64,000 nt of DNA from Plantactinospora endophytica (GTDB lineage Bacteria > Actinomycetota > Actinomycetes > Mycobacteriales > Micromonosporaceae), in NCBI RefSeq assembly GCF_016862915.1, contig NZ_BONW01000013.1, positions 434,001 to 498,000 on the forward strand. The letters run 5' to 3'. The position numbers and the translations under genes were made by a program. Shown here piece after piece: positions 17,787-44,245 of this stretch. Below the pieces are notes generated by a model. The model worked only from the letters and a program-made list of their open reading frames with translations, was not told where the DNA came from and did not search any database. How positions within the stretch are numbered: the stretch's first letter is position 1; each line of letters starts with the position of its first letter.

Positions 17787-17937
17787 ATCGTCCGGCCGGG
17801 CGGTCGGTTTCGGCCGGAACGGACCCGGTGGCCCGTCGTCCGGTCGCACCTTTCGGGACGCGGCTGACGAGGCGTCGCGCCGTACCGTGGTGTCCCTGGT
17901 CAGGGCATCGGCGGCGACGTCGAGGAAGATGGGTTCC

Positions 17938-27015: not shown

Positions 27016-27280
27016 GCCGTAACGGTAACCCGGCGGACTCCGCGCCGCCCGGTACGCCCGACGCCGCCGCGACGGTCAACATTGTCCTAGGACGCTTTAC
27101 GAGCTGTGCCCCCGCTCACCGACGGGCTGTGTCGTCGCTCGTCGACAGGCAGGGCCTCCGCTGGTCCGCGACTCGGGGCAAGTCCGCTAGCCGACACGTC
27201 GGTATCAGCCCGGCCACTCGGCCCGTCTGCCCACCACGACCGTCGCCCGTACGGGGCGACAAGTATCGGGAGGGAGCATC

Positions 27281-28000
27281 ATGACGGCTGGGACGGACGA
27301 GCCGGGCTCGGTCAGTCCAGGCACCGTGCCGATCGGCGCCATCGTGGCGTACGCCGGCGGCATGGACGAGGACTGGCTGCACGATCAGGGCTGGCTCTAC
27401 TGCGACGGCACCTCGGTGCCGAAGAAGGACTACCTCGACCTGTTCCTCGCGATCGGCGCCAACTACGGCGGCGGACGCAACGACTTCAACCTGCCGGACC
27501 TGCGCGGCCGGTTCTCGCGTGGGGTCGACAACACCAGCGGGCGCGACCCGTACGTCAAGGAGCGGGAGCCGTCGGCGCCCGGCGGCCTCTCCGGCGACCA
27601 GCCCGGCTCGGTCTTCGGCAGCCGGTCGGGACGCCCGGTGACCCGGCCGCTCAAGACGGAGGAGGGCGGCGAGCACGTGCACAACGTGCCGCACGTGCCC
27701 AAGGACAACAACGCCTACGCCATCGCCGGTGACCACTACGGCATCTGGCGGGACGGCTCGACCACCACCACGGAGGCGGGCAGGCACACCCACGAGATCG
27801 TCGACGGCGGCAACAAGGAGACGCGGCCGGTCAACAAGGCGGTCTTCTTCGTCATCAAGTTCGCCGACGCCCTCGACCTCGACCGGTACGGCGACGACGA
27901 CCGGTACGACGACGACCGGTACGACGACGACAACGATCGGGATCGGAACGGCGCGGCGACGGGCCGCCCGGGGAAGGGCGGTGCGGCATGGCGGCGTTGA
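27281..28000 (+). CDS. tail-collar domain protein 1, with Asp-rich tail
   Basis: A 239-residue protein of the phage tail-collar/microcystin-dependent (MdpB) type. The start VPIGAIVAYAG, then GWLYCDGTSVPKKDYLDLFLAIG and FNLPDLRGRFSRGVD, form the collar domain. Two His clusters (GEHVHNVPH and RHTHEI) recall the metal-binding His-x-His pairs of long tail-fibre tips. The C terminus is an acidic repeat of RYDDD, encoded by a short DNA repeat around 27890-27940. GGGAGGGAG precedes ATG 27281. It is first in a row of three paralogs, overlapping the next by 13 bp. No other phage structural gene is near. Confidence 0.85.
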   Translation: MTAGTDEPGSVSPGTVPIGAIVAYAGGMDEDWLHDQGWLYCDGTSVPKKDYLDLFLAIGANYGGGRNDFNLPDLRGRFSRGVDNTSGRDPYVKEREPSAPGGLSGDQPGSVFGSRSGRPVTRPLKTEEGGEHVHNVPHVPKDNNAYAIAGDHYGIWRDGSTTTTEAGRHTHEIVDGGNKETRPVNKAVFFVIKFADALDLDRYGDDDRYDDDRYDDDNDRDRNGAATGRPGKGGAAWRR

Positions 28001-28560: not shown

Positions 28561-28576
28561 CCGGAAAGGAAACCCG

Positions 28577-29221: not shown

Positions 29222-29260
29222 CCGGTGCCGGGACATCCCCCGGCCCGTAGCGCCGGTCGA

Positions 29261-29293
29261 CCGGGGCCGTGGCGATCCGTGCCATGGCCCCGG
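29261..29293. terminator. hairpin between collar genes and RHS gene
   Basis: CCGGGGCCGTGGC (29261-29273) pairs with GCCATGGCCCCGG (29281-29293) over 13 bp with one G-U pair and a 7-base loop. It may end or attenuate the collar transcript before the RHS gene. Confidence 0.45.
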
Positions 29294-29340
29294 TGCCGTG
29301 CGCCCCCATCCGTCTTTCCGCGCGCACCAGGAGCCGCATC

Positions 29341-32300
29341 ATGAGTCAGTACTCGATGGCCGCGTCGGCACCCGACGTCCGGCTGACCCAACTCTCCACC
29401 GGTGGCGTCGGCGACGTCGCCGACAGCCTCAACCTCTTCCGCGGCGACGTGAACCTGCCGTTGCCGCTGGTCGCACTCCGTGGCCGGAACGGCCTCGACC
29501 TCGCGGTCACCGCGTTCTACGGCAGCAACGTCGAGGCGGCGACCCAACCCTCCAACCGCACCGCGCCGACCGGGGTGCTCGGGGTGGGCTGGAGCCTGCC
29601 CCGCGAGCAGGTGCTGCGCGACCCCACCACCGACGACCTGTACCTGGTCGTCGGCGGCAGCCCGCGCCAGCTCGTCCGGGCCGCCAGCGGTGCCGCCGAC
29701 GAGTACGAACTGCTCGACCACCAGTTCTGGGCGATCCGCCGGTTCCCCGACGAGGCCGACCCGGGCCGCGACCGCTGGGAGGTCGTCCGCGAGGACGGCA
29801 CGGTGCACACCTACGGCCTGACCGGGGTCGAGTGGGGCGTGCAGTGGGACAACTGGCGCGGCTCCGGCACCGCGCCCGGCGGCCGGCAGTTTCCGCTGGC
29901 CTGGAACCTCGTCCGGGTCGTCACTCCGCAGGGCGACCGCCTCGACTTCTCCTACGAGCGGGAGGACGTGCCGATCGGCGGTCCCGCCGGTGCGAAATAC
30001 ACCCGCGCCTGCTACCTGACCGGGATCAGCCACACCGACGGGCAACGGATCGACCTGCGCTACCGGGAGAAGGAGCCGTTCGAGGTCGTCCCGCCGCACC
30101 CGACCCCGCCGGGCGGCGCCCAGGCGTTCCAGGACCGGTACGAGAGCCGCTACCTGGACCGGATCGAGGTACGCACCGACGCCGGCCCCGGTCTCTACAG
30201 CGTGCGCCTGGACTACGAGTTCCTGGACGTGTCCCGCACCGACGTGCGCGGTGACCGGAGCGCGTACCGCAAGCGGTACCTGAGCGCGGTCACCGAGGTC
30301 GCCGACACCGGGGCGGCGGCCCCGCCGTTGACGATCCGCTACGACGGCGACCGGACCGGGGCGAATCCCGGCGCGATCCGGGCGCTGACCCGCCCGCAGG
30401 GCGCGACCGTCCGCTACGAGTACGCCGTCGCCGCCCTGCCGAACACGGCGACCAGCCGTTCGGTGCCGTCGCCCGGCGCCGGCTACACCCCGCAGGTCTG
30501 GCACGGCCCCGGCTACACGGTCGTCACCTGGTACAGCGCTGCCTCGGGGGAGGTGCGGCTGGAGGCGTACACCTGGAACGGGGCGTGGAACGGCTGGGGC
30601 GTCACGAACGCGTGGGCGGTCCGCGAGGACACCCTCCAGGTGCAGACCGGACCGGGCTGTTACGCGCTGTCGTTCACCGACGCCCGGACCGGCGAGTTCC
30701 GGGTCCGGCTGTACCGGCAGGACCCGTACCGGAGCGGCGAGTGGAGCCTCGACCCGTACCGGCTGGACCTGCCGGCGGGGGAGACCACCCCGCTGGTCCG
30801 GCTGGGCCGCGACTTCGTCGCCGTCACCGACCCGGCCAGCAGGACGCTGCTGGTCGTCGACCACGACCCGGTGGCCGGCTGGGTCGCGCACCGGTTCGGC
30901 ACCCTCGGCGCCGACAGGCTGGCGCTGGCCGCCACCGCCGACGCCTGCCTGCTCGGCTGCTACGACAGCGCGGGCAAGGTGCTCCGGCTGGCCCTGCAAC
31001 ACCGGGACGGGCGCGGTGGCTGGCGCCGCTCCGACGTCCTGGACGAGCCGCTGGAGGTCGACTGGCGGTTCACCACCCCGGCCGGGCTGCTCGGCACCGG
31101 AGACACCTTCGCCGCCGCCTCCTTCGTGTCCCGGGTGGACGAGCAAAACTCTACTGTGGAGTACGGTTTCCGGCTGGTCACCTGGGGGCGGGACTTCACC
31201 TTCGGGCCGGTGCTGCGGCACGACGACAGCCAGCCGCTCGACCTGGCGAACCCGATCGGCGCGGTCGGGATCAGCGGCAGCACGGTCGGCAACGCCCAGC
31301 ACCTGTTCCGGTACGACGGCCGGCAGTGGCACCGCACCGAGTTGTTGGAGCCGGTGACCGGCAACCGCTACAGCTACGCGTACGGCACCGACGTGGCGGT
31401 GGCGGCGATCAGCGACGACGACGGCACCGTGCGGTACCGGCGGATCAGCTACGACCCGTACCTCGGCGAGTGGGGTCGGGCCCTCGGCGTCGACCTCGCC
31501 GACCCCGCCGACCCGCCGCACCCGGCGCCGCAGCCCAGCGTCTCCGGGGACGTGCTCGTCACCGGCGCGGAGGTGCTGCGCCGCACCCCTACCCTGGGCT
31601 GGGAGCCGCTGCTCACCCTGCCCAACGCCGCCGACCAGCACACCGTGGCCAACCGCGCGCCGAACTACCTGGTCTGGCAGGACGCCGGCCCGGACGGCCC
31701 GCTCGCCGGCAGCCACCTGGTCACCTTCGACGCCGACGGGACGCCCCGGCCGGCGCGGGTGCTCGACGGCGAGTCCTGCCACTTGCCGGAGCCGAAGGCC
31801 GGACAGGTGCTGGCCGGGCCGGAGGTCTGCGTCACCTACCGTGGCCCGTCGCTGGACGACACGCACGCGCTGCGGCTGCACCGGATCATCGACGGCCAGG
31901 TCGACACCGAACTGCGGGACCGGGCGGTACGCCGGGCCGCCGTCGACGACGGCTACTCGGTCATCCCGGTGACCGTCGAGTACGACACCGGCACCGCCAC
32001 CTTCGACCCGTACGGCCGGGTGGCGCAGTACGTCCGGACCCGGCTGTACCGGGGCGAGCCGGCGGACGCCGACGGCTACCTGGAGAGCGTCTTCTTCAAC
32101 GGCCTCCGCCCGGACGTGCCCGGCGTGGTGTACCCGACGTCGAGCGAGTACACCAACGCCCGGCAGTTCTTCGGCAAGCTCAACGGCCAGCTCTTCACCC
32201 AGACCGCCGTCGACGTGCACGGTCGGCCGGTCCGCCGGATCCGCAACGACCTCTACACCTACGACGGCACCAACTCGGCCTACCGGGTGCGGGGCAGCTT

Positions 32301-35300
32301 CACCCGGCGCCGGCGTACCGAGACGGCCGAGTCGCTGCACCTGTTCGACGCGGATCCGGCCTTTGCCGCCGAGTTGGACGCCCGGCGGATGCCGGCCGCG
32401 CTCACCCAGCGGCTGAGCACCGCCGGTTTCCCGCTCGCAGCACCGGTCACGGTGACCGTGGACCGGCCCGGCCGACGCTTCACGATCGTCGACGCGAAGG
32501 GCGTCGAGCTGGCCGCCGTACTCGACGAGGGGCAGCTCGGGCTGTTCGGCTGGATCGGCGACGTCAGCGAGTTCGAGTACAACGGGCGGGGGCAGCAGCA
32601 CCGCACCCGCGTACGCAACGTCAACAGTGCGGGTCAGCTCACCGAGCGGCTCACCGTCACCACGTTCGCCTGGGAGGTCTATCCGGCGCTGGTCGAGCGG
32701 CACCTGTTCGACCTCGCCGCCGAGGTGCGTACCGTCGACACCCGGACCGCCACTGTGCTGGACCGGTCGGTGAGCACCTACCGGAACGACTGGCCGGACG
32801 CGCCGGGGGTGTGGAGCTGGTCGGAGACGTACCGGTGGGACGGCAGCCCGGACGTCGGCGAGTTCGACCACCGCCGCTGGTCCGGCGGGGCCGGGCCGGA
32901 GCGCGGCTGGGTGCGGACCAACCGGGTGTTGGCGGTGACGCCGCACGGACTGCCCCGGGCCACCCTCGACGCCGGGGACAACCCGGGCGGGATCGTCTAC
33001 GACCGGGCCGGGCGGTTTCCGGTCGCGGTCTGCGGTCTCGCCGACCCGTCGGCCGACGAGGTGAGCTGGTACGGCTTCGAGGAGTACGAGGACACCGACG
33101 GCTGGCGGCTCACCCCCGACGGCACCGATCCGGCCGAGCACATCACCGCCGGGGACGCCTTCACCGGCCGGCGCCGCTTGGTGCTGCCCGGTGGGTCGAA
33201 GCGGGTCGGGCTGCGCCGCTCGTTCGTCCCGGCCCGTGCCGACCAGCCGTTCCTGCTCTCCTGCTGGGTGAAGACCGAGCCCGGTTTCGTCCCGGACCCG
33301 GCCGTCGCCGGCTGGCAGGTCACGGTCGGTTCGGCCGAGCCGACGGTGGTACCGGTACCGGACACCGACGGCAGGTGGGAGTACCTGCACCACGTCGTCA
33401 CCGGCGCCGCGCCCGACGACGAGATCACCGTCGAGGTGTTCCACAGTGGAGCGGGCGGGCCGGTGCTGGTCGACGCGATCGGCTTCGGGCCGCTGCATGG
33501 CCGGCTCACCGCGACCGTCTACGACCCGGTCGACCGGCTGCCGGAGGCGATGCTGGACCAGACCGGCTCGGTGCGGCGGATCGGGTACGACCACCGGCGC
33601 CGCCCGGTGCTCAGCGTCCAGGACGGCCAGCCGGTCGACGCCGGGGTGGAGTACCGCTGGCGGGAGCACCGGCCGGACGGCGCGTTCGACCCGGCCGACC
33701 CGGACGCCGGACTCGGCATCGTCGCCCGCAGCGACGGCGGGTACGCCGACTTCCGGCACGGCGACGAGTGGACCCGGAGTTGGGCGGCGAGCCCCGGGTG
33801 GCGGTCGGCCGGCGGCCGGTTGCACTACGACGGTACGCCCGAGACCGGCACGCTGACCTTCACTGGCCCGCTCGGCCGGGACGGCTGGGCCGCCCGGGTC
33901 GCGCTGGAAGGCTCCCGGCAGACCGCCGGGACGGTCGGCTTCACCTTCGGCGGCTACACGGCGGCGTGGATCGACGGGAGCTGGCTGCTGCTCGACCCCG
34001 ACGGCACGGTGCTGGCCGAGACCCCGGCGCCGGCCTTCGCGGAGCACGACCTGTTCCTCGTCGTCGCCGGCCGCTCGGTGCTGCTGCTCGCCGACGGCCG
34101 GACCGTGCTGTCCCACACCGTCCCCCGCACCGGCCCGTCCAGCATCGGAAAGGACGGCGGCGGAGAGCCCGGCGGCGGAAGGTTCGACGGCGGCGGCAAG
34201 AACGGCGGCGGCGGAAAGTTCGACGGGCGTGGGAAGGTCGGCAGCGGGAAGCCCCGGACTGGGAAGGGCCGTGGCGGCCGACGGGGCGTCCCGGCGCTGG
34301 CCGGGCCGGTCGCCTTCCACACCGACCGGGCCGTCGCGTTGCGCTGGCTGGCGGTCTGCGGCGATCCGGTGCTCAACGTCAACTACCAGGACAACGCCGG
34401 ACAGGCCCGGCAGTCGCAGTCGGTCGGCGACGGCACCGTGCTGGTCCAGGCGTGGGGCTACGACCGGCTCGGCCGTCCCGACCTGGCGGCCAAGACGGTA
34501 CGACTCGACGGCCTGCCCGGCTACCGGCCGGACCTGCTGGCCCCGCTCGACCCGGCCACCGGCCGGATGTCCGACTGCCCGCTCACCCGGGCGTACCCGG
34601 CCGACGACGGTTACCCGTTCAGCCGGGTCCGGTTCGAGGCGTCACCGCTGGGCCGCGCCGTCGAGCGGGGCGGGCCGGGCGCGGCGCTGGCGATCAACCC
34701 GGCGATCCCGGCCACGCAACGGCACACCAGCCGGGTCAGCTACGGGCTGAACCTGGCCGACCCGGTCTTCGGGCTGCCGGCCGGGCAGTACCGGGTGACC
34801 ACCGTCGTCGACCCGGACGGCGTACCGGCGATCCAGCTCACCGACAGGACCGGCGCGGTGGTCGCCACCCGGGCCGGCCGGGACGGCACCGAGATCCGCA
34901 GCCGGATGCGCTACGACGCCCGGGGCAACCCGGTCGAGCTCCGGCAGCCGAACTCCTTCGACCCCCGACTGGCCGAACCCGACCGGTACGTCACCACGAT
35001 GCGCTACGACCCGGCCGGCAACCTGGTGGAACTGCGTGGCCCGGACCAGACCGGCCCGGCTCGGACCGTGCACGACCGCCTCGGCCGGCTGCGCTTCCAG
35101 TGCATGCCGCAGCAGGCGGACGACGGGCAGTTCAGCTACCGCCGCTACGACCGGCTCGGCCGCCTGCTCGAACAGGGCACCTGCACGGCACCGTGGAACG
35201 AACCGGAACTACGGGCCCACGTCGACGAGCCGGACTGGCTGCCCGGCCCGGCCCGCTGGCACCTGCGGTACCACTACGACGGCGACGGCGACCTGCGGCT

Positions 35301-37659
35301 GCTCGGCCGGCTCTGGCGTACCGAGGTCGCCTCGGTGGACGGCGGCGACCGGGCCGGCACCGTCACCACCTACCGGTACGACTCGCTCGGGCGGGTGGCG
35401 GGCACCGCGCTCACCGTGTCCGGCGTCGACGGCGGAGCGCCGCAGCTCGTCGAGTACGGCTACGACCTCACCGGTACCGCCACCAGCATCCGGCACCCCG
35501 ACGACGGGGTACGGGTCGACTACGCCTTCGACGGGTTCAACCGGGTGGCGGGGGTCGCGCTGACCGGCGCCGAAGGGGTACGCACCGAGGTGGCCGCGTA
35601 CTCGTACACCCCGGAGGGGCAGGTCGACACCGAGACGCTGCGCCCCGGCGACCCGCGAGAACTCGTCCGGCGCTACGGCTACACCAGCGCCGGCTGGCTG
35701 CACACCGTCGCCGACCGGCACCTCGTCGAGCGCACCGACTACCTCGGCCCGGAGTTGCCCGGCGGTGGCTCGCACACCGGGCGGGCGATGCGGGTACGCA
35801 GCACGTTCACCGGAGTCGACGACCCGGCGTTCCTCGCCGAGCACCGCTACGAGTACGCGTACGACGACTTCGGCCGGCTGCGCAGTGCCCTCGTCACCCC
35901 GAACGGGTCGGCCAGCATCGGCGACCGGCAACCGACCCGGTACGACCCGAACGGCAACGTGCTCGCGCGGCAACAGGGCGACCGGGAACAGCGGTACCTC
36001 TACTACCCGGGCAGCAACCGGCTGCGCCGCCGGGAGGACGGTACCGCCCGGACCAGGCCGGCGGCGGGGCGCTCCGGGGACGTGTCGTTCGACGCCGACG
36101 GCAACGTCACCGGGTTGCCCGGCCAGCGGGCGGAGGGTCTCCGCTACGACCCGGTCACCGGGCTGGTGACCAGTGTGGACACCGGAAACGTCCGCACGGT
36201 CGACTTCCGGTACGACGCCGCCGGCAACCGGGTGTTCCGGTCCGGACCCGACGGCGTGCGGTTGACCGTCTCCGGCGAGAACGGCCAGCCGCTGGTGCGT
36301 GGTCCGGTCGACGTGCCACGCCAGCGGCGGGCCCGGGAGTTCCTGGTGCACGGCCCGGTCGGGCTGACCGCGGTGCACCGGTCCGGCGAACTGCAACACG
36401 TGCTGGCGGGACGGCTCGGCTCGACCCGGGCGATGTGGGACGGCGACGGCCTGGTGGCCGCGTTCAACTACCAGCCGTACGGCGAACTGCTCGGCCCGGC
36501 CTACCGGGCGCCGGGGGCGGTGGACCTGCCGTACCTGTTCACCGGTCAGGAACTGGACCGGGGTACCGGCCTCTACCACCTCGGTGTGCGCTGTTACGAC
36601 CCGGTCAGCGGCCGGATGATCAGTGTCGACCCGGCCGGTCAGTACCCCAGCCCCTACCTGTACGCCGGCGCCGACCCGATCAACCTGATCGACCCGACCG
36701 GCGCCTTCGCCTGGTCCTCGGGCGCGTTCGCGGCGATCTTCGGCGGCATCGCCGCGATCATCGGCGGGCTGGCGTTGACCATCCTCACCGCCGGAGCCGC
36801 CACTCCGCTGATGATCGCCGGGGCGCTCGGCGGCGGTCTGCTCATCGGTGCCGGTGTCGCCAGCGCGGCGTACGGCATTCCCCGGGCCGATGCCGACACC
36901 GCCCGGTTCGACTGGGCACAGTGGGGAGTCACGGTCGGTCTCGGTGCCGGGTTTGGGCTGCTGTCCGCCGGGGCCGGCCTGGCACTGGCGCCGGCCGCGG
37001 CGAGTCTCGGCACGCTCGGCGGGCTCGCCCTGGAGACCGCGCTGGGCGGCGCGCTCGGCATGGCCGACAGCCTGGCCACCACGGTCACCATGAACCATCT
37101 GGCCGGGCAGGACCTGCTCGGCGGCTGGCAGACGGCGCTCTGGGCCGGTGCCGCCGCCGGTGGCGTCGCCGGATTCCTCGGCGGCATGCTCAGCCGGGGC
37201 GCGTCGCTGCGCACCAACCGGGCCCTGGCCCGGGGCCGGGGCGGCACCGGCCGGCTGTATGTGCTCGACCAGGACGTGCCGCCGATGGGCCACTCGATCC
37301 TGCTCGGCGAGGAGGCGTCCGGGGCACAGTGGACGACGCAGCTCATCCGGGGCGGCAAGAATCCGACCCCCAGTATCGGGTCGACCGGCAAGACCCTTGC
37401 CGAGCTCCAGAAGTCGAAGTCCTTCATGCCGGTACGCGGCGGCGCCTCGTTCGAGATGGCGACCGGGACGGTGAACAACCTCGGCGCCTGGGCCGCAGGA
37501 CGGGCCACGCAGAACGCCGGGACCTACCAACACCTGATCAACGACTGCACCACCTGGGCCAAGGAGGTGCTGCGCCAGGTGGACATCTACCCGCCGGCCT
37601 GGGCGTTCGACCCGCGTACCCTCGGCTGGTGGGCCCGCAGCGTCGGGCAGAGCATCTGA
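29341..37659 (+). CDS. giant SpvB/RHS-repeat polymorphic toxin
   Basis: A 2772-residue protein. The start (TQLSTGGVGDVADSLNLF, NLPLPLVALRGRNGLDLAV, GVGWSLPRE) matches the SpvB/TcaC-like region of Tc and RHS toxins. YD-type RHS repeats (YDxxGR, YDPAGNLVELRG) dominate residues ~1690-2350. The RHS core is complete: LGSTRAMW (~2360), GLYHLGVRCYDPVSGRMISVDP (~2410) and a DPTG end at ~2455. The 315-residue variable C terminus has Gly/Ala-rich hydrophobic helices, then a domain with His2651 (MGHSILL) and Cys2736 (NDCTTWAKEVL), the His-before-Cys order of permuted papain-like (LRAT/NlpC-type) folds. A 48-residue Gly/Lys-rich insert occupies ~1601-1648. AGGAG precedes ATG 29341. No signal peptide and no obvious immunity gene are seen. 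Confidence 0.88.
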   Translation: MSQYSMAASAPDVRLTQLSTGGVGDVADSLNLFRGDVNLPLPLVALRGRNGLDLAVTAFYGSNVEAATQPSNRTAPTGVLGVGWSLPREQVLRDPTTDDLYLVVGGSPRQLVRAASGAADEYELLDHQFWAIRRFPDEADPGRDRWEVVREDGTVHTYGLTGVEWGVQWDNWRGSGTAPGGRQFPLAWNLVRVVTPQGDRLDFSYEREDVPIGGPAGAKYTRACYLTGISHTDGQRIDLRYREKEPFEVVPPHPTPPGGAQAFQDRYESRYLDRIEVRTDAGPGLYSVRLDYEFLDVSRTDVRGDRSAYRKRYLSAVTEVADTGAAAPPLTIRYDGDRTGANPGAIRALTRPQGATVRYEYAVAALPNTATSRSVPSPGAGYTPQVWHGPGYTVVTWYSAASGEVRLEAYTWNGAWNGWGVTNAWAVREDTLQVQTGPGCYALSFTDARTGEFRVRLYRQDPYRSGEWSLDPYRLDLPAGETTPLVRLGRDFVAVTDPASRTLLVVDHDPVAGWVAHRFGTLGADRLALAATADACLLGCYDSAGKVLRLALQHRDGRGGWRRSDVLDEPLEVDWRFTTPAGLLGTGDTFAAASFVSRVDEQNSTVEYGFRLVTWGRDFTFGPVLRHDDSQPLDLANPIGAVGISGSTVGNAQHLFRYDGRQWHRTELLEPVTGNRYSYAYGTDVAVAAISDDDGTVRYRRISYDPYLGEWGRALGVDLADPADPPHPAPQPSVSGDVLVTGAEVLRRTPTLGWEPLLTLPNAADQHTVANRAPNYLVWQDAGPDGPLAGSHLVTFDADGTPRPARVLDGESCHLPEPKAGQVLAGPEVCVTYRGPSLDDTHALRLHRIIDGQVDTELRDRAVRRAAVDDGYSVIPVTVEYDTGTATFDPYGRVAQYVRTRLYRGEPADADGYLESVFFNGLRPDVPGVVYPTSSEYTNARQFFGKLNGQLFTQTAVDVHGRPVRRIRNDLYTYDGTNSAYRVRGSFTRRRRTETAESLHLFDADPAFAAELDARRMPAALTQRLSTAGFPLAAPVTVTVDRPGRRFTIVDAKGVELAAVLDEGQLGLFGWIGDVSEFEYNGRGQQHRTRVRNVNSAGQLTERLTVTTFAWEVYPALVERHLFDLAAEVRTVDTRTATVLDRSVSTYRNDWPDAPGVWSWSETYRWDGSPDVGEFDHRRWSGGAGPERGWVRTNRVLAVTPHGLPRATLDAGDNPGGIVYDRAGRFPVAVCGLADPSADEVSWYGFEEYEDTDGWRLTPDGTDPAEHITAGDAFTGRRRLVLPGGSKRVGLRRSFVPARADQPFLLSCWVKTEPGFVPDPAVAGWQVTVGSAEPTVVPVPDTDGRWEYLHHVVTGAAPDDEITVEVFHSGAGGPVLVDAIGFGPLHGRLTATVYDPVDRLPEAMLDQTGSVRRIGYDHRRRPVLSVQDGQPVDAGVEYRWREHRPDGAFDPADPDAGLGIVARSDGGYADFRHGDEWTRSWAASPGWRSAGGRLHYDGTPETGTLTFTGPLGRDGWAARVALEGSRQTAGTVGFTFGGYTAAWIDGSWLLLDPDGTVLAETPAPAFAEHDLFLVVAGRSVLLLADGRTVLSHTVPRTGPSSIGKDGGGEPGGGRFDGGGKNGGGGKFDGRGKVGSGKPRTGKGRGGRRGVPALAGPVAFHTDRAVALRWLAVCGDPVLNVNYQDNAGQARQSQSVGDGTVLVQAWGYDRLGRPDLAAKTVRLDGLPGYRPDLLAPLDPATGRMSDCPLTRAYPADDGYPFSRVRFEASPLGRAVERGGPGAALAINPAIPATQRHTSRVSYGLNLADPVFGLPAGQYRVTTVVDPDGVPAIQLTDRTGAVVATRAGRDGTEIRSRMRYDARGNPVELRQPNSFDPRLAEPDRYVTTMRYDPAGNLVELRGPDQTGPARTVHDRLGRLRFQCMPQQADDGQFSYRRYDRLGRLLEQGTCTAPWNEPELRAHVDEPDWLPGPARWHLRYHYDGDGDLRLLGRLWRTEVASVDGGDRAGTVTTYRYDSLGRVAGTALTVSGVDGGAPQLVEYGYDLTGTATSIRHPDDGVRVDYAFDGFNRVAGVALTGAEGVRTEVAAYSYTPEGQVDTETLRPGDPRELVRRYGYTSAGWLHTVADRHLVERTDYLGPELPGGGSHTGRAMRVRSTFTGVDDPAFLAEHRYEYAYDDFGRLRSALVTPNGSASIGDRQPTRYDPNGNVLARQQGDREQRYLYYPGSNRLRRREDGTARTRPAAGRSGDVSFDADGNVTGLPGQRAEGLRYDPVTGLVTSVDTGNVRTVDFRYDAAGNRVFRSGPDGVRLTVSGENGQPLVRGPVDVPRQRRAREFLVHGPVGLTAVHRSGELQHVLAGRLGSTRAMWDGDGLVAAFNYQPYGELLGPAYRAPGAVDLPYLFTGQELDRGTGLYHLGVRCYDPVSGRMISVDPAGQYPSPYLYAGADPINLIDPTGAFAWSSGAFAAIFGGIAAIIGGLALTILTAGAATPLMIAGALGGGLLIGAGVASAAYGIPRADADTARFDWAQWGVTVGLGAGFGLLSAGAGLALAPAAASLGTLGGLALETALGGALGMADSLATTVTMNHLAGQDLLGGWQTALWAGAAAGGVAGFLGGMLSRGASLRTNRALARGRGGTGRLYVLDQDVPPMGHSILLGEEASGAQWTTQLIRGGKNPTPSIGSTGKTLAELQKSKSFMPVRGGASFEMATGTVNNLGAWAAGRATQNAGTYQHLINDCTTWAKEVLRQVDIYPPAWAFDPRTLGWWARSVGQSI

Positions 37660-37676
37660 TCTGGAATTACCTCGGC

Positions 37677-37719
37677 GCGCCGAATCCGCGCCCGGCCGGT
37701 CCGGGCGCGGATTCGGCGC
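37677..37719 (+). terminator. strong 19-bp terminator after the RHS gene
   Basis: GCGCCGAATCCGCGCCCGG (37677-37695) and its exact complement at 37701-37719 form a perfect 19-bp stem with a 5-base loop, 17 bases past the stop codon. It separates the RHS gene from the next two genes, so they are unlikely to be read from its promoter. The following 130 bases to the next start hold nothing I can name. Confidence 0.8.
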
Positions 37720-37850
37720 TCGACCTGGTCGACGGTCGGCATACAGCAGCCTGCCGAGGCGCAGGCTTATCCGACCGGTCGGACAGTGGCTTGTGCCCCT
37801 GCCACGTGACACCCTCGGGACGTGCCGGCTCGATCGGAGGGAGCTGATGT

Positions 37851-38402
37851 GTGGATCTTCTGACGGCCGCCGCGTGGGGCTTGGTTGGCAGCGCCGTTGC
37901 GGAGGCGCTCAACAGCTATTCCATGATGCGGCCGACCACGGAGTCTCGGGGTCGGTGGCAATGGCCGTGGCGTGACCGCCGGGATCGACCAATCATCCTC
38001 TTTGCGATCTTCCTGCGGACCGCCGCTGCCACCGGAGTGGCAACCGCCGCCTTCTCCGGCAATCTGGTCGACAGTGCGTTTGCCCTCTTTGTCCTCGGGC
38101 TCGCCTCTCCTCTGCTTATTGCCAAGATGTTCGACCAGGTGCGGGTCCTCGACTCAGCATCAACGGCGCCGTCCCTGACAACACCAGCCGGATTCGATCA
38201 AGCCGAGCGTAGGGTTCTGGCTGTCATGACGGAAGGCGTCAGCTACGACGAGAGTCAGATCAGCAGCGCCGCCCTGATGTCTCCTAGCGAGTTGTCGACG
38301 GTTGTCCGCAATCTGGTCGGCAAGGGCGCTCTCCAGGAGGAGGCACAGTCCTCCGAAGAACCTCGGTATCGTCTTGCCCGACCTGGCGCGGCAGGCGAGT
38401 AG
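37851..38402 (+). CDS. membrane protein with C-terminal winged-helix domain, unknown
   Basis: A 183-residue protein. The first half has two or three hydrophobic segments (AAAWGLVGSAVAEAL, TAAATGVATAAFSG, ALFVLGLASPLLIA). The second half (QAERRVLAVMTEGVSYDESQISSAALMSPSELSTVVRNLVGKGAL) reads as a winged helix of MarR type. Membrane-tethered DNA-binding proteins of this kind are uncommon. A GTG start at 37851 follows GGAGGGA. Codon use is less GC-biased than in the RHS gene, consistent with acquired DNA. The next gene starts 6 bp after its stop. I do not recognise the family. Confidence 0.6.
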   Translation: MDLLTAAAWGLVGSAVAEALNSYSMMRPTTESRGRWQWPWRDRRDRPIILFAIFLRTAAATGVATAAFSGNLVDSAFALFVLGLASPLLIAKMFDQVRVLDSASTAPSLTTPAGFDQAERRVLAVMTEGVSYDESQISSAALMSPSELSTVVRNLVGKGALQEEAQSSEEPRYRLARPGAAGE

Positions 38403-38408
38403 CCGGAC

Positions 38409-39116
38409 ATGACAGCCGAGCTTTGGGCACCTGCCGGCGCTAGCGGTATCGCAGCCGTGATCTCCGTCATCAACCTTACGACCGCTCGGAAGAAGATGCC
38501 CTCGTGGCACGCCTTGCACTGGGTGGTTCTGCGGATCGCGGTCGACGCGCTGGCCAGCCTCGCCGTCTACCACCTGCTCGCTACACAACTTCCGGACGTC
38601 GACTGGCTGCCCCTGATGCTCGTGGCCGGGCTGTCCGGGCCTGCCCTTCTCCGTACGCAGATTTCGTTCATGGCGAACGACCAACGGCTGACCCACTACG
38701 GGCCGGCCAGCGTCTACGGACGGCTCCAGAAGGCATTGGACGCCGCCATCGACGACGTGAGCTCGACCCAACAATCCCAATGGCTGTCCAACAGCGCGCT
38801 TCCGTTGATAGAACGACTGGAGCTTGACCGCATCCGCACTCGGGTGGAGCACTACCTCAAGGGGCTCGACCGGTTGACCGAGGCGCAGCAGAGCCGGGAG
38901 CTCCGCTACCTACACGACGTGGTGAATGACAACACGGATCACCGGAGCAAGTGCCGGACGATAGTGCAACGCCTACTCGACACGGGCGGGCGTCGGCTCG
39001 TTCGCAGTCTTATGCGAGAGGGGGCACGGGCGTCGGAGGGGTCCGAAGTGGTGCCGGCGCCAGTGTTGACCAGCGATGCCGGTTCGCCAGCCGGACACGC
39101 CGAATCCGGCATTTGA
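38409..39116 (+). CDS. membrane-anchored helical protein, unknown
   Basis: A 235-residue protein. Three hydrophobic stretches occupy the first ~85 residues (ASGIAAVISVINL, WVVLRIAVDALASLAVYHLLA, WLPLMLVAGLSGPALL). The remaining ~150 residues are polar helices with Leu/Arg periodicity (LIERLELDRIRTRVEHYLKGLDRL, RTIVQRLLDTGGRRLV) that could form a coiled coil. No family recognised. It lies 6 bp after the winged-helix membrane protein, so the two form an operon and may interact. A terminator hairpin follows. Confidence 0.6.
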   Translation: MTAELWAPAGASGIAAVISVINLTTARKKMPSWHALHWVVLRIAVDALASLAVYHLLATQLPDVDWLPLMLVAGLSGPALLRTQISFMANDQRLTHYGPASVYGRLQKALDAAIDDVSSTQQSQWLSNSALPLIERLELDRIRTRVEHYLKGLDRLTEAQQSRELRYLHDVVNDNTDHRSKCRTIVQRLLDTGGRRLVRSLMREGARASEGSEVVPAPVLTSDAGSPAGHAESGI

Positions 39117-39187: not shown

Positions 39188-39664
39188 TCAGAGCACCATC
39201 CATTCGGTCCGGATGATTCGGTCCTCGACATCACCGATACCGGGTATCCGGCAGACGAGTCTGGTCGCACCAGGTGGCAGATCAGCAACGGCGAACCGGC
39301 CCAGCGCATCGGCTCGGATCCGGACCGTACCGTCCGGTTGCTCCACGTCGATTTCTGCCGCAACCGGCGGCACCACCTGCCCGACGAGTCGCCGCGCCTC
39401 ACCAGCCTGGGCGACCTCGACCTCCACCGACCAGTCCTCGACGTCGAAGGTGAGCAGCCGGTCCCCGTCGCCGCGTACCCCGGCCAGGGCCGGCGCGACC
39501 TCCTCGGCGAGGGTGGCGAGTTCGGCGTCCAGGGTGCGCCAGTCGAGGCTGCGGCGGGCCGCGTCGACGACGGCGTCGGGTACCGAGTCGGCCGGCGCGA
39601 ACAGGGCACGCAGCCCGGCGAGCAGCTCCGCGTCGGTCCAGTCGGGTCCGTCGGCGGTGCTCAT
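39188..39664 (-). CDS. small unknown protein coupled to ECF sigma factor
   Basis: A 158-residue protein. The first ~60 residues are helical and acidic (DWTDAELLAGLRALFAPADSVPDAVVDAARRSLDWRTLDAELATL). The rest is beta-rich (LLTFDVEDWSVEVEV, RRLVGQVVPPVAAEIDVEQPDG, GRFAVADLPPGATRLVCRI) and looks like a carboxypeptidase-regulatory (transthyretin-like) sandwich. There is no membrane helix and no zinc-finger anti-sigma motif. Its ATG overlaps the sigma stop (4 bp), the position where anti-sigma factors are usually found. A role as sigma inhibitor or adaptor, possibly a protease substrate, is an inference. Confidence 0.7.
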   Translation of the reverse strand: MSTADGPDWTDAELLAGLRALFAPADSVPDAVVDAARRSLDWRTLDAELATLAEEVAPALAGVRGDGDRLLTFDVEDWSVEVEVAQAGEARRLVGQVVPPVAAEIDVEQPDGTVRIRADALGRFAVADLPPGATRLVCRIPGIGDVEDRIIRTEWMVL

Positions 39665-40224
39665 GCGCCGGCACCTCCTCCCGCCTGGCCGGGCCGTAGC
39701 TGCCGGCGCAGCGTCTCCAGGCAGCGCGACCTGGTCGGGCCGAGGCTGCCGACCGGTACCCGCAACTCCTCCGCGACCGCCGCGTAGCTGCCGGTCGGCT
39801 CGATCACCAGCAGTTGCAGCACCGTCTGGCAGCGCTCCGGCAGCCGCCCGAACGCCTGCCAGAGCTGCTCGGCGCGCTCGGCGTCGAGCAGCCCCTGCCA
39901 CGGCTCCGGCGCCCGGTCGTCGGCCACGTCGGTGCCGTCGTGCAGCGGCGCGACCGGGCGACGCTGCCGCAGCAGGGTCACCGCCTCCCGGCGTGCGGTG
40001 GTGGCGAGCCAGGCGCCGAGCGCGCCGGGATCGCGGATCCGGTCCAGGTGCTCGACCAGCCGCAGCCAGGTGACCTGGCTGACGTCGGCCGCGTCGGTGG
40101 CGTTGAGCCCGAGGCTCCGGGCGACCGCCCAGACCAGCCCGGCATGCCGGGTGACGATGGTGTCCCAGGCGCCGCGGTCGCCGGCCGCCGCCCCGGCGAG
40201 CAGCGACCCCGTCTCGGCCGTCAT
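39661..40224 (-). CDS. ECF RNA polymerase sigma factor
   Basis: A 187-residue ECF factor. Region 2 is seen as WDTIVTRHAGLVWAVARSLGL, DAADVSQVTWLRLVEHLDRIRDPGALGAWLATTARREAVTLLR; region 4 as LPERCQTVLQLLVIEPTGSYAAVAEELRVPVGSLGPTRSRCLETLRRQL. It has no C-terminal extension. The ATG at 40224 has TAGGCT 8 bases upstream and may be read from its own near-leaderless promoter, because a hairpin separates it from the subtilase gene 83 bp upstream. It is coupled to the small protein at 39188. The group is common beside CHAT proteins in actinobacteria to my recollection. Confidence 0.9.
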   Translation of the reverse strand: MTAETGSLLAGAAAGDRGAWDTIVTRHAGLVWAVARSLGLNATDAADVSQVTWLRLVEHLDRIRDPGALGAWLATTARREAVTLLRQRRPVAPLHDGTDVADDRAPEPWQGLLDAERAEQLWQAFGRLPERCQTVLQLLVIEPTGSYAAVAEELRVPVGSLGPTRSRCLETLRRQLRPGQAGGGAGA

Positions 40225-40274
40225 GACCCGACAGCCTAGTGTCCGACGGTCCTCTCTGGAGCATCCGTCGGGAG

Positions 40275-40307
40275 GCGTCCGCACCGGGCAGGCGCCGGCG
40301 CGGACGC
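40275..40307 (-). terminator. hairpin between subtilase and sigma genes
   Basis: GCGTCCGC (40275-40282) and GCGGACGC (40300-40307) form a perfect 8-bp stem directly after the subtilase stop codon. It may partly uncouple sigma expression from the subtilase. Confidence 0.4.
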
Positions 40308-41483
40308 TCACCGCAGACCCCGGTACCCGTCGAAGGTGCCGGCGGCGGACTCGACGACGTGTCGCAGCGCGGCCGGCGCGGACATCCCGGCGGCGATCTG
40401 CCGGACCACCTCGGCGGCCACCCGGGGGGTGGCGAACGAGGTGCCGCTCCACTGTGCCCAGCCCGTCGGAAAGAACTCGGGGTGGTTGATGAAGGTGCTG
40501 GCCACGTCCTGGCCGCGAGCCGCCACCGACACCCACGGACCGGCGTTGCTCCAGGTGCAGAGCCGCTCGCCGTCGTGTGCGGCGACCGCGGCGATCCGGT
40601 TGCTCCAGGGCAGCTCCGCCCCGGCGAACGCCGCCGGCCAGAACCGGTTGACCCGGTTGCCGTCGTTGCCGGCGGCGGCCACCACCACCCGGTCCGGCAC
40701 CGCCAACGCGGTCTCCAGGGCACCGCCCAGGCCGACCGGCGGCAGGTCCTGCTCGGTGAAGCCGCCGAGCGACAGGTTCACCACCCGGATGTCCGGGTCC
40801 AGTCGGCCGAGGGCCTGTACCAGGTCCGCCTCGGTGCAGATGCCGAACGTGTCGAGCACCTTCAGCACGTCGAGCCGGACCGCCCGGGTCTGCCGGACCA
40901 CCACCCCGGCGATGAAGTTGGCGTGCCCGACGTCGCCGTCGAGCAGCCCGTCGTTGTCCACGTCCGTCTCCGTCTCCACGTCGACGGTGCGGCCCCGGTA
41001 GTAGGCGTCCGGCAGCACGGTGTCGGTCCACAGGCCGGTGTCGACGATCGCCATCGGTACCGCCGCGTCCCGGATCCGCCGGGTCTCGATCGGCGCCGAG
41101 GCGACCGGTACCGGCGGGCCGAACGGTCCGCCGTGGTTGAACGGGGTACTGAGGAAGACGTGGTTCGGTGCGACGACGGCGGCACCGCTCGGCAGCCCGC
41201 CACGTACCTGGCGTACCGAGCCCGGCACGTCCAGCCCCCGGGTACGGTACCGGCGCAGCCCCGGTACGACCTCCTCGTCGCCGAGCGCGGTCACCTCGGC
41301 CCGGTGCTCGGTCAGGTACCGCTCGACGTGCCGCCGCTCGTCGTCGACGACGAGTAGTTCGTCGTTGACGTACCAGACCCTGGACCGGTCGGCCGCCGGT
41401 ACGGACCGCAGTTGCGCCAGGCCGCCCAGGCGGCGCTGCCGACGGTCGTGGTAGCTGGCGACCCGGTGCTCAGAGGGGGGCAT
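40308..41483 (-). CDS. cytosolic S8 subtilisin-like serine protease
   Basis: A 391-residue subtilase with a full triad: Asp148 (AIVDTG), His187 (GHANFIAG) and Ser349 (SGTSFATP), plus the oxyanion Asn273 (AAGND). The ~130 residues before the catalytic domain (VWYVNDELLVVDDERRHVERYL and onward) are not a secretion signal and resemble an N-terminal adaptor or prodomain. No signal peptide or C-terminal anchor exists, so it should act in the cytosol. ATG 41483 has AAGGAG 6 bases upstream; a GTG just before it is less well placed. It heads the operon with the sigma factor and is divergent from the TPR-CHAT gene 134 bp away. Confidence 0.88.
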   Translation of the reverse strand: MPPSEHRVASYHDRRQRRLGGLAQLRSVPAADRSRVWYVNDELLVVDDERRHVERYLTEHRAEVTALGDEEVVPGLRRYRTRGLDVPGSVRQVRGGLPSGAAVVAPNHVFLSTPFNHGGPFGPPVPVASAPIETRRIRDAAVPMAIVDTGLWTDTVLPDAYYRGRTVDVETETDVDNDGLLDGDVGHANFIAGVVVRQTRAVRLDVLKVLDTFGICTEADLVQALGRLDPDIRVVNLSLGGFTEQDLPPVGLGGALETALAVPDRVVVAAAGNDGNRVNRFWPAAFAGAELPWSNRIAAVAAHDGERLCTWSNAGPWVSVAARGQDVASTFINHPEFFPTGWAQWSGTSFATPRVAAEVVRQIAAGMSAPAALRHVVESAAGTFDGYRGLR

Positions 41484-41617
41484 CACAGACTCCTTCGATT
41501 CGGGATGAGATGCGCGCGGAAACGACTGCGCGAAGAACTGTCCTACGGCGGACGTCCGTCGTCGGCCCGCTGATACGACGGCTTTCCGACTGTCCCCGGC
41601 CGTGCCACGATGTTCCG

Positions 41618-44245
41618 GTGGGTGACCCGACCGGCACGCCTCGGAACGGTCCGGCGGACGAGGCGCTGCGGCTGGTCACCGCCGACCCGGTCCGGGCCCG
41701 TGCCCTGGCCGCCGCCGAGGCCCGCACCGCCCGGCGGGCCGGTGACCGGGCCGCCGAGTCGACCGCCGAACGCGCGCTCGGTCTCGCCGCCCGCGAGCTG
41801 CACGACGCCGGGGCCGCGCTGCGGCACCTGCGCCGGGCGGTCCGGGTGGCCGACACCGCCGGGCTCGCCGAGCGGGCGGCCGAGGCCCGGATGAGCCTCG
41901 CCCTGGTACTCGCCGAGGCGGGCCGGCCGACCGCCGCACTTCGCGAGATCGACCGGGCCGCCCCGGTGCTGGACGGGCTGCCGGCCGCCCGGCTGCAGAT
42001 GCAGCGGGCCCTGATCCTCGACCGGCTCAACCGGTTCGCCGAGGCGATGGCCGGTTACTCCACCGCGATCGCCGTCTTCCGGCGCGCCGACGACCAGCTC
42101 TGGCAGGCCCGGGCGCTGACCAACCGAGGGGTGTTGCACAGCTACCGGGGCAGCCTGCGGCAGGCCGAGAGCGACCTGGTGGCCGCCGAGCGGATCTACA
42201 CGGCGCTCGGGCAGGACCTCGCCGTCGCGCAGGTCCGGCACAACCTCGGGTACGTCCGTGCTGTCGGCGGCGACATCCCCGGCGCGATGCGCTGGTACGA
42301 CGTCGCCGACGAGTACTTCGCCGCGACCACCCGCCCGGCGATCGCCCTGATGGACCGGGGTGAACTGCTGCTCCGGGCGCGACTGCTGCCGGAGGCCCGC
42401 AGCGTCGCCGAGGCAGCGCTGTCGGCGGCCCGGGCCAGCCGGATGCGACTGTTCGAGGCGCAGGCACGGCTGATGCTGGCCGAGATCACGCTGGCGGTCG
42501 GCGATCGGGCGGCGGCCGACGGGTACGCGGCGACGGCGTACCGGTCGTTCCGTCGGCAGCACCGGCCGGCCTGGGCCGCCCTGGCCCGGTACGTCGCGCT
42601 GCGGGCGGCCGACGACCCGAGCCCGGCCCGGCACCGCCGTACCGCCCGACAGGTCGCCGCAGACCTCGCCATTACCGGCTGGGTCGGCCCCGCCCTGGAC
42701 GCCCGGCTCTACGCCGCCCGACTGGCACCCGGGCACGCCGAGGCGGTGGCGGAGCTGCGCGAGGTACGCCGGATCGGCCGGCACGGTACCGCCGAGTTGC
42801 GGGCCCGGGCCTGGCACGCCGAGGCGTTGCTCCGGGACGCCGCCGGCGATCCGGCCGGTGCCCGACGCGCCCTGCTGGCCGGTGCCCGGATCCTGGAGGC
42901 GCACCAGGCGGCACTCGGCGCGACCGAGCTGCGCGCCTTGGCCGGCGGTTACGCCACCGACCTCGCCACCACCGGACTGCGGCTGGCCCTGCGTACCGGG
43001 CGGGCTTCCTCGCTGCTCTGGTGGGCGGAACGGTGGAAGGGGCTGGCGCTGCGGCTGCCGCCGACCCGGCCACCGGACGAGGAGGCGCTCGCCACCGACC
43101 TGGCCGAGCTGCGCCGGCTCGGTGCCGAGGCCGGTGCCGACGTCACCGACCAGCGGCAGGCGGTGCTCCGGCGACGGCAGCGCCTCGTCGAGGAACGCAT
43201 CCGGCGGCGTAGTTGGCAGGCCCGGGGACAGGGCACCGCGCCGGCCGTCGACCGGCTCGACGGGAACCTCGACCAGCTCGGTGGGCGTACCCTCGTCGAG
43301 CTGGTCGAGATCGACGGCGACCTGCACGCGGTCGTGGTCCGGGACGGTCGCGCCCGGACCCGGCGGCTGTGCCGCACCGCCGAGGTCACGGCCGAACTCG
43401 ACGCGCTGCGGTTCGCGCTGCGCCGCGTCGTACTCCGGCACGGCCGGCCGGCGTCCCGGCAGGCCGCTGCCGACGCCGCCCGGTATGCCGCCGGCCGGCT
43501 CGACGAGCTGCTGTTCGCGCCGCTGCGGCCATGGCTCGGTGACGGCGAATGGGTTCTGGTCCCGGTCGGTGCGCTGCACGCGACGCCGTGGGCGCTGCTG
43601 CCGTCCTGTCACGGTCGGCCCGTGACGGTCGCGCCGTCGGCGGCGGCCTGGTCGGCGGCGACCCGGCGGGCCGGCCGGCACCCGGACGGTGGCCGGCCGC
43701 TGCTGGTCGCCGGCCCCGGTCTCGCACACGCCGAGACCGAGGTCCGGCAGTTGGCCGGGCTGCGGGCCCCGGCACAGCTCCTGGTCGGGACGAAGGCGAC
43801 CGCCGACGCGGTGCTGGCCGCCCTCGACGGGACGGCGTCGGCGCACATCGCCGCGCACGGCACCTTCCGGGCGGACAACCCGATGTTCTCCCACCTGCGG
43901 CTCGCCGACGGTCCGCTCACCGTCTACGACCTGGAACGGCTGACCGAACCGCCGTCCGTGGTGGTGCTCTCGGCGTGCGACGCCGGCCTGTCGGCAGTGC
44001 ATCCGGGCGAGGAACTGATGGGACTCGCCGCCGCGCTGCTCGGGCTCGGTACCGCGACCGTGGTGGCCAGCGTGCTGCCGGCCCGGGACAACACGGCGCT
44101 GACCCTGATGGCCGCCTTCTACCGCCGGCTCGCCGAGGGCGCCGGGCCGGCCGAGGCGCTCGCCGCCGCGCAGGCCGGCCTCGGCGACGGGGTCGACGAG
44201 GCGACAGCGACCGCCGCCGCCTTCGTCTGCTTCGGCTCCGGCTGA
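41618..44245 (+). CDS. TPR-CHAT caspase-like protease
   Basis: An 875-residue cytosolic protein. Residues ~20-480 are tandem helical repeats of TPR type (ALRHLRRAVRVADTAGL, ALTNRGVLHSYRGSLRQAESDL, QVRHNLGYVRAVGGDIPGAMRWYD). The C-terminal CHAT domain has His747 (HIAAHGTF) and Cys787 (VLSACDAGLS), then EELMGLAAALLGLGTATVVASVLPARD, the usual CHAT core. Start choice is weak: GTG 41618 fits the alignment, while ATG 41510 would leave only 26 bp to the divergent subtilase. A possible ECF-like promoter GGAAAC-N16-GTCC lies at 41518-41543. It faces the subtilase-sigma operon, and a joint proteolytic signalling system is proposed. Confidence 0.87.
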   Translation: MGDPTGTPRNGPADEALRLVTADPVRARALAAAEARTARRAGDRAAESTAERALGLAARELHDAGAALRHLRRAVRVADTAGLAERAAEARMSLALVLAEAGRPTAALREIDRAAPVLDGLPAARLQMQRALILDRLNRFAEAMAGYSTAIAVFRRADDQLWQARALTNRGVLHSYRGSLRQAESDLVAAERIYTALGQDLAVAQVRHNLGYVRAVGGDIPGAMRWYDVADEYFAATTRPAIALMDRGELLLRARLLPEARSVAEAALSAARASRMRLFEAQARLMLAEITLAVGDRAAADGYAATAYRSFRRQHRPAWAALARYVALRAADDPSPARHRRTARQVAADLAITGWVGPALDARLYAARLAPGHAEAVAELREVRRIGRHGTAELRARAWHAEALLRDAAGDPAGARRALLAGARILEAHQAALGATELRALAGGYATDLATTGLRLALRTGRASSLLWWAERWKGLALRLPPTRPPDEEALATDLAELRRLGAEAGADVTDQRQAVLRRRQRLVEERIRRRSWQARGQGTAPAVDRLDGNLDQLGGRTLVELVEIDGDLHAVVVRDGRARTRRLCRTAEVTAELDALRFALRRVVLRHGRPASRQAAADAARYAAGRLDELLFAPLRPWLGDGEWVLVPVGALHATPWALLPSCHGRPVTVAPSAAAWSAATRRAGRHPDGGRPLLVAGPGLAHAETEVRQLAGLRAPAQLLVGTKATADAVLAALDGTASAHIAAHGTFRADNPMFSHLRLADGPLTVYDLERLTEPPSVVVLSACDAGLSAVHPGEELMGLAAALLGLGTATVVASVLPARDNTALTLMAAFYRRLAEGAGPAEALAAAQAGLGDGVDEATATAAAFVCFGSG

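What the first reader, a model, noticed from the sequence alone, without database searches (positions are those of the whole stretch)
39188..44245. TPR-CHAT protease facing a subtilase-ECF sigma-small protein operon: a possible CRISPR-free Craspase-like signalling system
Seen: a TPR-CHAT protease with both catalytic residues is divergent from a cytosolic S8 protease with full triad, an ECF sigma factor and a 158-residue protein whose ATG overlaps the sigma stop. Known: in type III-E CRISPR systems a TPR-CHAT protease cleaves Csx30, which frees an RpoE-like sigma factor. Inference: the small protein takes the Csx30/anti-sigma place and a second protease acts in the same cascade, with no CRISPR nearby. 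To my knowledge this exact combination has not been described as a working system.
Basis: partly seen in the sequence, partly recalled or inferred. Interest (0 to 1): 0.82.

Follow-up and report, generated by a model that had tools for sequence, protein, structure and literature searches.

The report
Protease and sigma factor gene module
A soil bacterium carries four neighbouring genes, two proteases, a gene-switching sigma factor and a small partner protein, that travel together across many actinobacteria; the set was already known as a gene neighbourhood, and in some relatives its likely switch sequence also stands in front of genes for a phage-tail-like injection machine.

Summary
The four genes are real and travel together. 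In Micromonosporaceae 85 of 99 examined loci carry all four, in seven gene orders (84 of 98 after dropping a duplicate). Of the best 80 named loci found through CHAT alone, 62 carry all four. The combination is not new: a 2022 review describes carboxypeptidase-domain, subtilase and CHAT genes as the conserved context of sigma group ECF54 and reports a proposal of proteolytic control. It is not a Craspase member (Csx29 model 12.1 bits, cut-off 300), though the logic may be alike.

New here: (1) a promoter signature, GTATCA-N16/17-(C/G)TC, before the subtilase-sigma-small operon in many, not all, lineages, in the window at 41576-41551 (-); (2) the same signature before a contractile-injection-system operon beside the module in 10 of 10 linked loci examined, four genera; (3) one invariant arginine in the indel-rich linker of the small protein (59 of 59), a plausible protease site.

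Best reading: CHAT (perhaps with the subtilase) cleaves a small anti-sigma protein and frees an autoregulated sigma factor. Binding and cleavage are untested. The window has no injection-system operon beside its module.

The parts
39188..39664 (-). Small protein, 158 aa: N-terminal segment, variable linker, C-terminal CarboxypepD_reg-like domain; candidate anti-sigma protein and protease substrate
39473..39475 (-). Codon of R64, invariant linker arginine (LAGVR|GDG): candidate cleavage site (inference)
   Evidence: R in 59 of 59 rows of A3; in A1 44 of 50 at the same column, the other 6 have T there; in the two of those six that were printed the R follows next
39661..40224 (-). ECF sigma factor, 187 aa, gene context of group ECF54
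   Evidence: context description
40308..41483 (-). S8 subtilase, 391 aa, full triad, no signal sequence seen in this copy
41551..41576 (-). Predicted sigma-dependent promoter GTATCA-N17-GTC before the subtilase-sigma-small operon
41510..44245 (+). TPR-CHAT cysteine protease (start codon uncertain; H783, C823)
27202..27227 (+). Second promoter-like match GTATCA-N17-GTC, weakly supported
   Evidence: no such motif in the forward direction upstream of the six other collar loci examined
27281..28000 (+). Phage tail collar protein, 53 nt after that match; possible target (uncertain)

Best explanation
This is one copy of a four-gene signalling module, widespread in Actinomycetota, with the gene context of sigma group ECF54. 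Shown by sequence: the four genes co-occur in many gene orders, and a promoter signature GTATCA-N16/17-(C/G)TC precedes the operon that contains the sigma gene in many lineages, so the sigma factor very probably drives its own operon there. Inferred: the small protein holds the sigma factor inactive, its N-terminal part binding the sigma factor and its C-terminal domain docking on the TPR-CHAT protease. A stimulus sensed by the TPR part activates CHAT, which cuts the small protein after the invariant linker arginine (R64). Trimming or decay of the remnant, perhaps with the subtilase, frees the sigma factor. The sigma factor then raises the subtilase-sigma-small operon and lineage-specific output genes, among them a contractile injection system operon in Catellatospora and relatives. 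My estimates for the steps: functional unit 0.97; autoregulation 0.85; small protein is the sigma inhibitor 0.6; cut by CHAT at R64 0.4.
For: Unit: all four genes in 85 of 99 loci, seven orders, sigma-small adjacent in 98 of 99; 62 of the best 80 CHAT-seeded named loci and 13 of 20 phylum loci have all four. Promoter: in 98 family loci the spacing N17 gives 49 matches against 2-12 at each other spacing from 10 to 26; 20 phylum loci 23 (N16) and 7 (N17) against about 1.3; 35 other actinobacterial loci 16 and 14 against about 2.9. In Dactylosporangium the CHAT+S8 pair sits apart from the S8-sigma-small operon, and the S8 gene of each part has the signature. Targets: 10 of 10 injection-system-linked family loci have GTATCA-N17-CTC before the operon's first gene, with spacers that differ between lineages. 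Arginine; kept in remote homologues. Catalytic residues invariant. Precedents: Csx29 cleaves Csx30, which inhibits CASP-sigma; CalpL cleaves the anti-sigma protein CalpT.
Against: No binding, cleavage or expression data. The published proposal for ECF54 assumes no anti-sigma factor. GTATCA is absent upstream of the leading gene in 58 of 97 family loci, and the signature is not enriched in 22 loci of Saccharothrix, Amycolatopsis, Lentzea and kin (2 matches, one of them before an S8 gene), so it is not universal. In the own genome the motif is barely enriched: 13 against 8 control hits, 8 against 7 with a variant pattern, none of the strict form. The invariant arginine may be structural. No fused gene joins any two of the four in the loci held. 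The subtilase looks exported in some copies.
Confidence: 0.5

Rival explanations
1. The proteases degrade the sigma factor itself, as proposed in print for ECF54; the small protein is a chaperone or adaptor and no anti-sigma factor exists.
For: Published proposal for this gene context; the same review gives AntA degradation by ClpXP as a tested actinobacterial case.
Against: It leaves unexplained why the small gene is the direct downstream partner of the sigma gene (98 of 99) and why the small protein keeps an invariant arginine in a variable linker.
Confidence: 0.25
2. CHAT and subtilase are outputs, not switches: they act as killing or cell-remodelling proteases induced by the sigma factor, whose activity is controlled only by the small protein sensing a ligand.
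For: The promoter signature lies before the subtilase gene; some subtilases look exported; in linked loci the same signature leads an injection-system operon; two phylum loci (L254, L257) have a match before a frame overlapping CHAT.
Against: In the family set CHAT is not led by it (GTATCAG in CHAT orientation 0 of 85), as expected for a constitutive sensor rather than an output; in the S8-sigma-small-CHAT order (26 loci) CHAT may still be cotranscribed.
Confidence: 0.2
3. The module is a true member of the CRISPR type III-E Craspase family that lost its CRISPR part.
For: Similar logic and a CHAT domain detectably related to solved CHAT proteins including Csx29 (profile E 3e-9 to 1e-5).
Against: Csx29 model 12.1 bits against a cut-off of 300; a different solved CHAT protein (8rot) is closer; no CRISPR-like array seen in 20-64 kb; the small protein matches no NCBIfam family.
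Confidence: 0.03
4. The neighbourhood is a chance or purely inherited synteny without joint function.
For: None found.
Against: Seven gene orders and recurrence in many genera of Actinomycetota.
Confidence: 0.01

Closest known systems
ECF54 sigma group context (Casas-Pastor 2021 and Huang 2015, as cited in PMC8999054; passages of the review read, the two originals not held)
   Same: ECF sigma with carboxypeptidase-domain, subtilase and CHAT proteins in the conserved context; proteolytic control proposed
   Different: The review speaks of proteolytic enzymes without an anti-sigma factor; here the carboxypeptidase-like gene encodes a small protein with only a CarboxypepD_reg-like domain and no peptidase match, in an anti-sigma position. 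No GTATCA promoter, injection-system link or linker arginine appears in the passages read
Type III-E Craspase: Cas7-11/Csx29, Csx30, CASP-sigma (PMC10028731, passages read)
   Same: TPR-CHAT protease, ECF sigma, inhibitor protein gene, sigma motifs in its own locus
   Different: RNA-guided and CRISPR-bound there; here no CRISPR seen, an extra subtilase, a small protein with no NCBIfam match; inhibition and cleavage not shown here
CalpL/CalpT/CalpS type III CRISPR system (PMC11417357, passages read)
   Same: Protease, anti-sigma and ECF sigma logic
   Different: Lon protease with SAVED sensor and cyclic nucleotide trigger
EACC2-caspase systems with ECF sigma (PMC8195603, passages read)
   Same: Caspase-like protease genes beside ECF sigma genes outside CRISPR; transcriptional output proposed
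   Different: Different partner families (EACC2, DUF1822 TPR); the word subtilisin does not occur in the text
PADLOC defence families BovA and IetS
   Same: CHAT protein matches BovA (36.9 bits, E 4e-10) and S8 protein matches IetS (19.9 bits, E 5e-5) over part of their length
   Different: The matches cover parts of the CHAT and S8 domains only; partner genes of those systems were not looked for

Membership tests
ECF54 module | ECF-type sigma factor | tested here: met
   TIGR02937 78.7 bits, cut-off 42.9; Sigma70_r2 54.6; region 4 below Pfam cut-off
ECF54 module | Subtilase, CHAT and carboxypeptidase-domain genes in the context | tested here: met
   CarboxypepD_reg only E 0.0015, below cut-off, in the window copy
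ECF54 module | Match to the ECF54 sigma model or tree | not testable with these tools
   The defining papers are not held and no ECF54 model is among the tools
Craspase (type III-E) | Csx29 TPR-CHAT protein | tested here: not met
   NF041237 12.1 bits against cut-off 300
Craspase (type III-E) | CRISPR array or Cas7-11 nearby | tested here: inconclusive
   No CRISPR-like repeat array seen in window 20000-64000; 1-20000 not searched; Cas7-11 was not searched for; PADLOC on the four proteins gave only IetS and BovA matches
Craspase (type III-E) | Csx30-type inhibitor | tested here: inconclusive
   Small protein: 0 NCBIfam matches; whether that library holds a Csx30 model was not checked
Craspase (type III-E) | Protease cleaves the sigma inhibitor | not tested
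   Needs an experiment
Contractile injection system regulon | Sheath, tube and baseplate genes beside the module | tested here: not met
   Not met in the window: the only sheath match of this genome is on another contig. Sheath within 10 kb in 10 other family genomes; tube, gp25, baseplate genes

The most novel reading that the evidence does not exclude
A CRISPR-free protease switch, spread through Actinomycetota, in which a TPR-CHAT protease cuts a small anti-sigma protein after one invariant arginine and so releases an autoregulated ECF sigma factor that, in Catellatospora and relatives, turns on a whole contractile injection system through GTATCA-N17-CTC promoters.
Probability: 0.33. Interest if true: 0.86.

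Novelty: new member of a known kind. Interest (0 to 1): 0.6.

Why it matters
ECF54 has a published gene context and a proposed proteolytic control; in the review passages read, only AntA of another group is named as experimentally shown. The results give three concrete handles: a promoter sequence to report activity, one residue to change in the small protein, and a predicted output (an injection-system operon) in named Catellatospora species. If the reading holds, protease-to-anti-sigma switches like Craspase and Calp would have a widespread CRISPR-free counterpart, and a transcriptional controller of an actinobacterial contractile injection system would be identified.

Tried and rejected
Chance synteny: rejected by seven gene orders. 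Craspase membership: Csx29 model not met. Collar gene of the window as a sigma target: the match at 27202 is 14.3 kb from the module promoter, but of the two genomes with strong orthologs G010 has no small-protein match and G042 has no motif upstream of the gene; kept only as uncertain. A motif 7 kb from this genome's only sheath match leads no called gene on its strand, and near-identical matches recur in the sheath regions of three relatives, which would fit conserved coding sequence; not used. Gene fusions among the four: none in the loci held. Small-protein profile against solved structures: only PafC at E 0.085, not used. Full TPR-CHAT sequence against solved structures: none at E 0.01; the CHAT-domain profile does match. 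Structure prediction: switched off.

Corrections and dropped rows: an earlier count gave the control as 9; the table sums to 8, used here. L131 overlaps L076 and is dropped where said; L129 and L130 (CHAT genes of this genome without the module) have no small protein and are not among the 99. L131-L136 and the own paralogues L127, L128 were chosen by me; the other 90 are the best match of each genome. Three sheath rows below the family's cut-off were left out. The 20 phylum loci were my choice from 52 genomes with a match; the grouping of named loci is mine and leaves some out (22, 5 and 35 of the 80 were used).
Full report
What is there. The window is G000:C13:434001-498000 of a 9.68 Mb genome. 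The CHAT histidine and cysteine are invariant in 19 of 19 aligned sequences, and the S8 triad plus N273 in 26 of 26. PADLOC gives partial matches of CHAT to BovA and of S8 to IetS. Of six CHAT matches in this genome, three lie in modules and three do not.

Co-occurrence. The small protein was searched in 150 genomes of the family; 91 have a match. I fetched up to 16 kb around the best match of the 90 other genomes, two paralogues and two module-free CHAT loci of this genome, and six further paralogues, and added the window. With iterated profiles, 85 of 99 loci with a small protein have all four genes (84 of 98 without the duplicate L131), in seven gene orders; the sigma gene directly precedes the small gene on the same strand in 98 of 99. 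The 14 others: 9 have S8-sigma-small, 2 sigma-small-CHAT, 1 sigma-small-S8, 1 sigma-small, 1 small alone. In a phylum sample 52 of 396 genomes, 33 of 237 genera, have a small-protein match; of 20 such loci fetched, 13 have all four genes. The CHAT domain alone, searched in named genomes, confirmed 248 candidates, of which the best 80 were kept; they include Salinispora, Catellatospora, Saccharothrix, Actinomadura, Amycolatopsis, Nonomuraea, Kribbella, Blastococcus and Acidimicrobiia. Of these 80, 68 have the small protein and 62 all four (counted from its table). Of the 12 without it, eight lie at contig ends or on short contigs and four have CHAT with S8 (three Dactylosporangium). The own genome holds three complete modules, the window's and two others.

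Is it known? A 2022 review (PMC8999054; passages read) states that members of group ECF54 have carboxypeptidase, subtilase and CHAT domain proteins conserved in their context, and that proteolytic control without an anti-sigma factor has been proposed. The two sources it cites (Casas-Pastor 2021; Huang 2015) are not held. The string ECF54 occurs in three held papers, only one of them relevant. I found no held paper that links ECF54 or a CHAT-sigma module to a contractile injection system; the paper searches were (listings), with passages of five papers looked up. The held library lacks most subscription papers, and I could not check whether the promoter below is already printed; that Casas-Pastor predicts promoter motifs for ECF groups is recalled.

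Promoter. Upstream regions showed a recurring oriented motif: GTATCA lies upstream of the leading gene in 39 of 97 loci, and in the 39 motif-bearing upstream sequences T and C then appear at fixed positions (T 32 of 39, C 36 of 39). A spacing test over whole loci gave 49 matches of GTATCA-N17-(C/G)TC in 98 loci against 2-12 at each of the other spacings 10-26. Outside the family: 23 (N16) and 7 (N17) in 20 phylum loci against about 1.3 per other spacing; 16 and 14 in 35 other named loci against about 2.9; 4 and 5 in 5 Salinispora loci, where N19 also gives 5, so this set decides nothing; and 1 and 1 in 22 loci of Saccharothrix, Amycolatopsis, Lentzea and kin, that is no enrichment, although one of these two stands before an S8 gene. 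The signature stands before the subtilase gene when that gene leads and before the sigma gene when that one leads. In the family CHAT is not led by it: GTATCAG in CHAT orientation 0 of 85; two phylum loci (L254, L257) have a match before a frame overlapping CHAT. In the window the copy is 41576-41551 (-). Against generality: 58 of 97 leading genes lack GTATCA.

Output genes. A strict pattern gave 45 matches in 16 of 17 genomes against 8 for the reversed pattern; the own genome has none of this strict form. In ten family loci of four genera, Catellatospora, Allorhizocola and two unnamed (names by matching contig lengths), a tail-like operon follows CHAT: a first protein of 222-231 aa, then sheath and tube. 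Where the fetched DNA reaches further, gp25, baseplate J, tail protein I, a PASTA protein and two short proteins that look like membrane proteins (my reading) follow; Pfam confirms sheath, tube, gp25, baseplate J, tail protein I and PASTA in one locus each. Ten of ten such loci have GTATCA-N17-CTC upstream of the first gene, with spacers that differ between lineages. Sheath and small-protein genes lie within 10 kb in 11 pairs, 10 genomes, against 0.31 pairs expected if independent in 8.5 Mb genomes; 52 genomes have both. These ten genomes are related, so they are not ten independent events. One more genome (G115) has such an operon about 15 kb away without the motif. The first protein of the operon shares a CarboxypepD_reg-like domain with the C-terminal part of the small protein (profile comparison E 2.6e-5, probability 75). 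In Catellatospora the signature also stands before a 376-aa protein without Pfam match (three family loci), or in one species before a 303-aa protein with a subthreshold cysteine-peptidase match.

In the window itself the output is unclear. The own genome has 13 matches of GTATCA-N17-(C/G)TC against 8 control matches. One of the others, 27202 (+), lies 53 nt before a tail-collar gene followed by a second collar gene and a 2771-aa RHS-repeat protein. The collar orthologs examined do not support it. I leave it as a possibility.

Small protein. It has no NCBIfam match and a weak CarboxypepD_reg match. The alignment shows a conserved N-terminal segment, a linker full of insertions and deletions, and the C-terminal domain. 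In that linker one arginine is invariant: 59 of 59 rows in A3; in A1 44 of 50 at the same column, and 49 of 50 rows have a [VLITAM]R pair there, the exception having HR. Remote relatives keep it (VRGD, IRGT, VRSG). An invariant residue in an otherwise variable linker suits a protease site; several clan CD cysteine proteases prefer basic residues (recalled). This is inference.

Mechanism and rivals. The best reading is an inhibitor-release switch: CHAT, probably the sensor through its TPR part, cuts the small protein; the freed sigma factor drives its own operon and outputs. It parallels Csx29/Csx30/CASP-sigma and CalpL/T/S. The CHAT domain is detectably but distantly related to Csx29 and fails the Csx29 model. 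The role of the subtilase is open: 11 of 95 family subtilases carry a twin-arginine-like N-terminus by a simple rule of mine, including the copy on contig C46 of this genome, while the window copy does not. Main rivals are direct proteolysis of the sigma factor (the printed proposal) and proteases as outputs.

Verdict. A real, conserved module of an already described kind; the mechanism is untested but now has a promoter, a candidate site and, in relatives, a striking predicted output.

Noticed in passing
window 10979-14296 (-): A second CHAT protein (1105 aa, CHAT 144 bits) without the sigma module; this genome has six CHAT matches in all.
   Followed up: partly
window 27281-39116 (+): Two tail-collar proteins, a 2771-aa RHS-repeat protein and two short frames without Pfam match directly beside the module; a third collar-like match lies at 28661-29215.
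   Followed up: partly
L128 (own genome, contig C46): A paralogous module whose subtilase begins with a twin-arginine-like signal, unlike the window copy.
   Followed up: partly
L046, L049, L054, L044: Promoter-led 376-aa protein of unknown family (L046, L049, L054); in L044 a 303-aa protein with a subthreshold cysteine-peptidase match: possible payloads of the linked injection system.
   Followed up: no
L074 (178-3822): A small-protein fragment without sigma gene on a stretch that also holds what looks like a trypsin-like protease gene and a short partner frame (reading by eye).
   Followed up: no
L302, L315, L322 (Dactylosporangium): CHAT+S8 pair split from the S8-sigma-small operon; the S8 genes of both parts have the promoter signature.
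   Followed up: partly
22 loci of Saccharothrix, Amycolatopsis, Lentzea and kin (such as L274, L280, L297): The GTATCA signature is not enriched in these modules, so their sigma factors may read another sequence.
   Followed up: no
window 41510-44245 and 40308-41483: Partial PADLOC matches of the CHAT protein to BovA and of the S8 protein to IetS.
   Followed up: no
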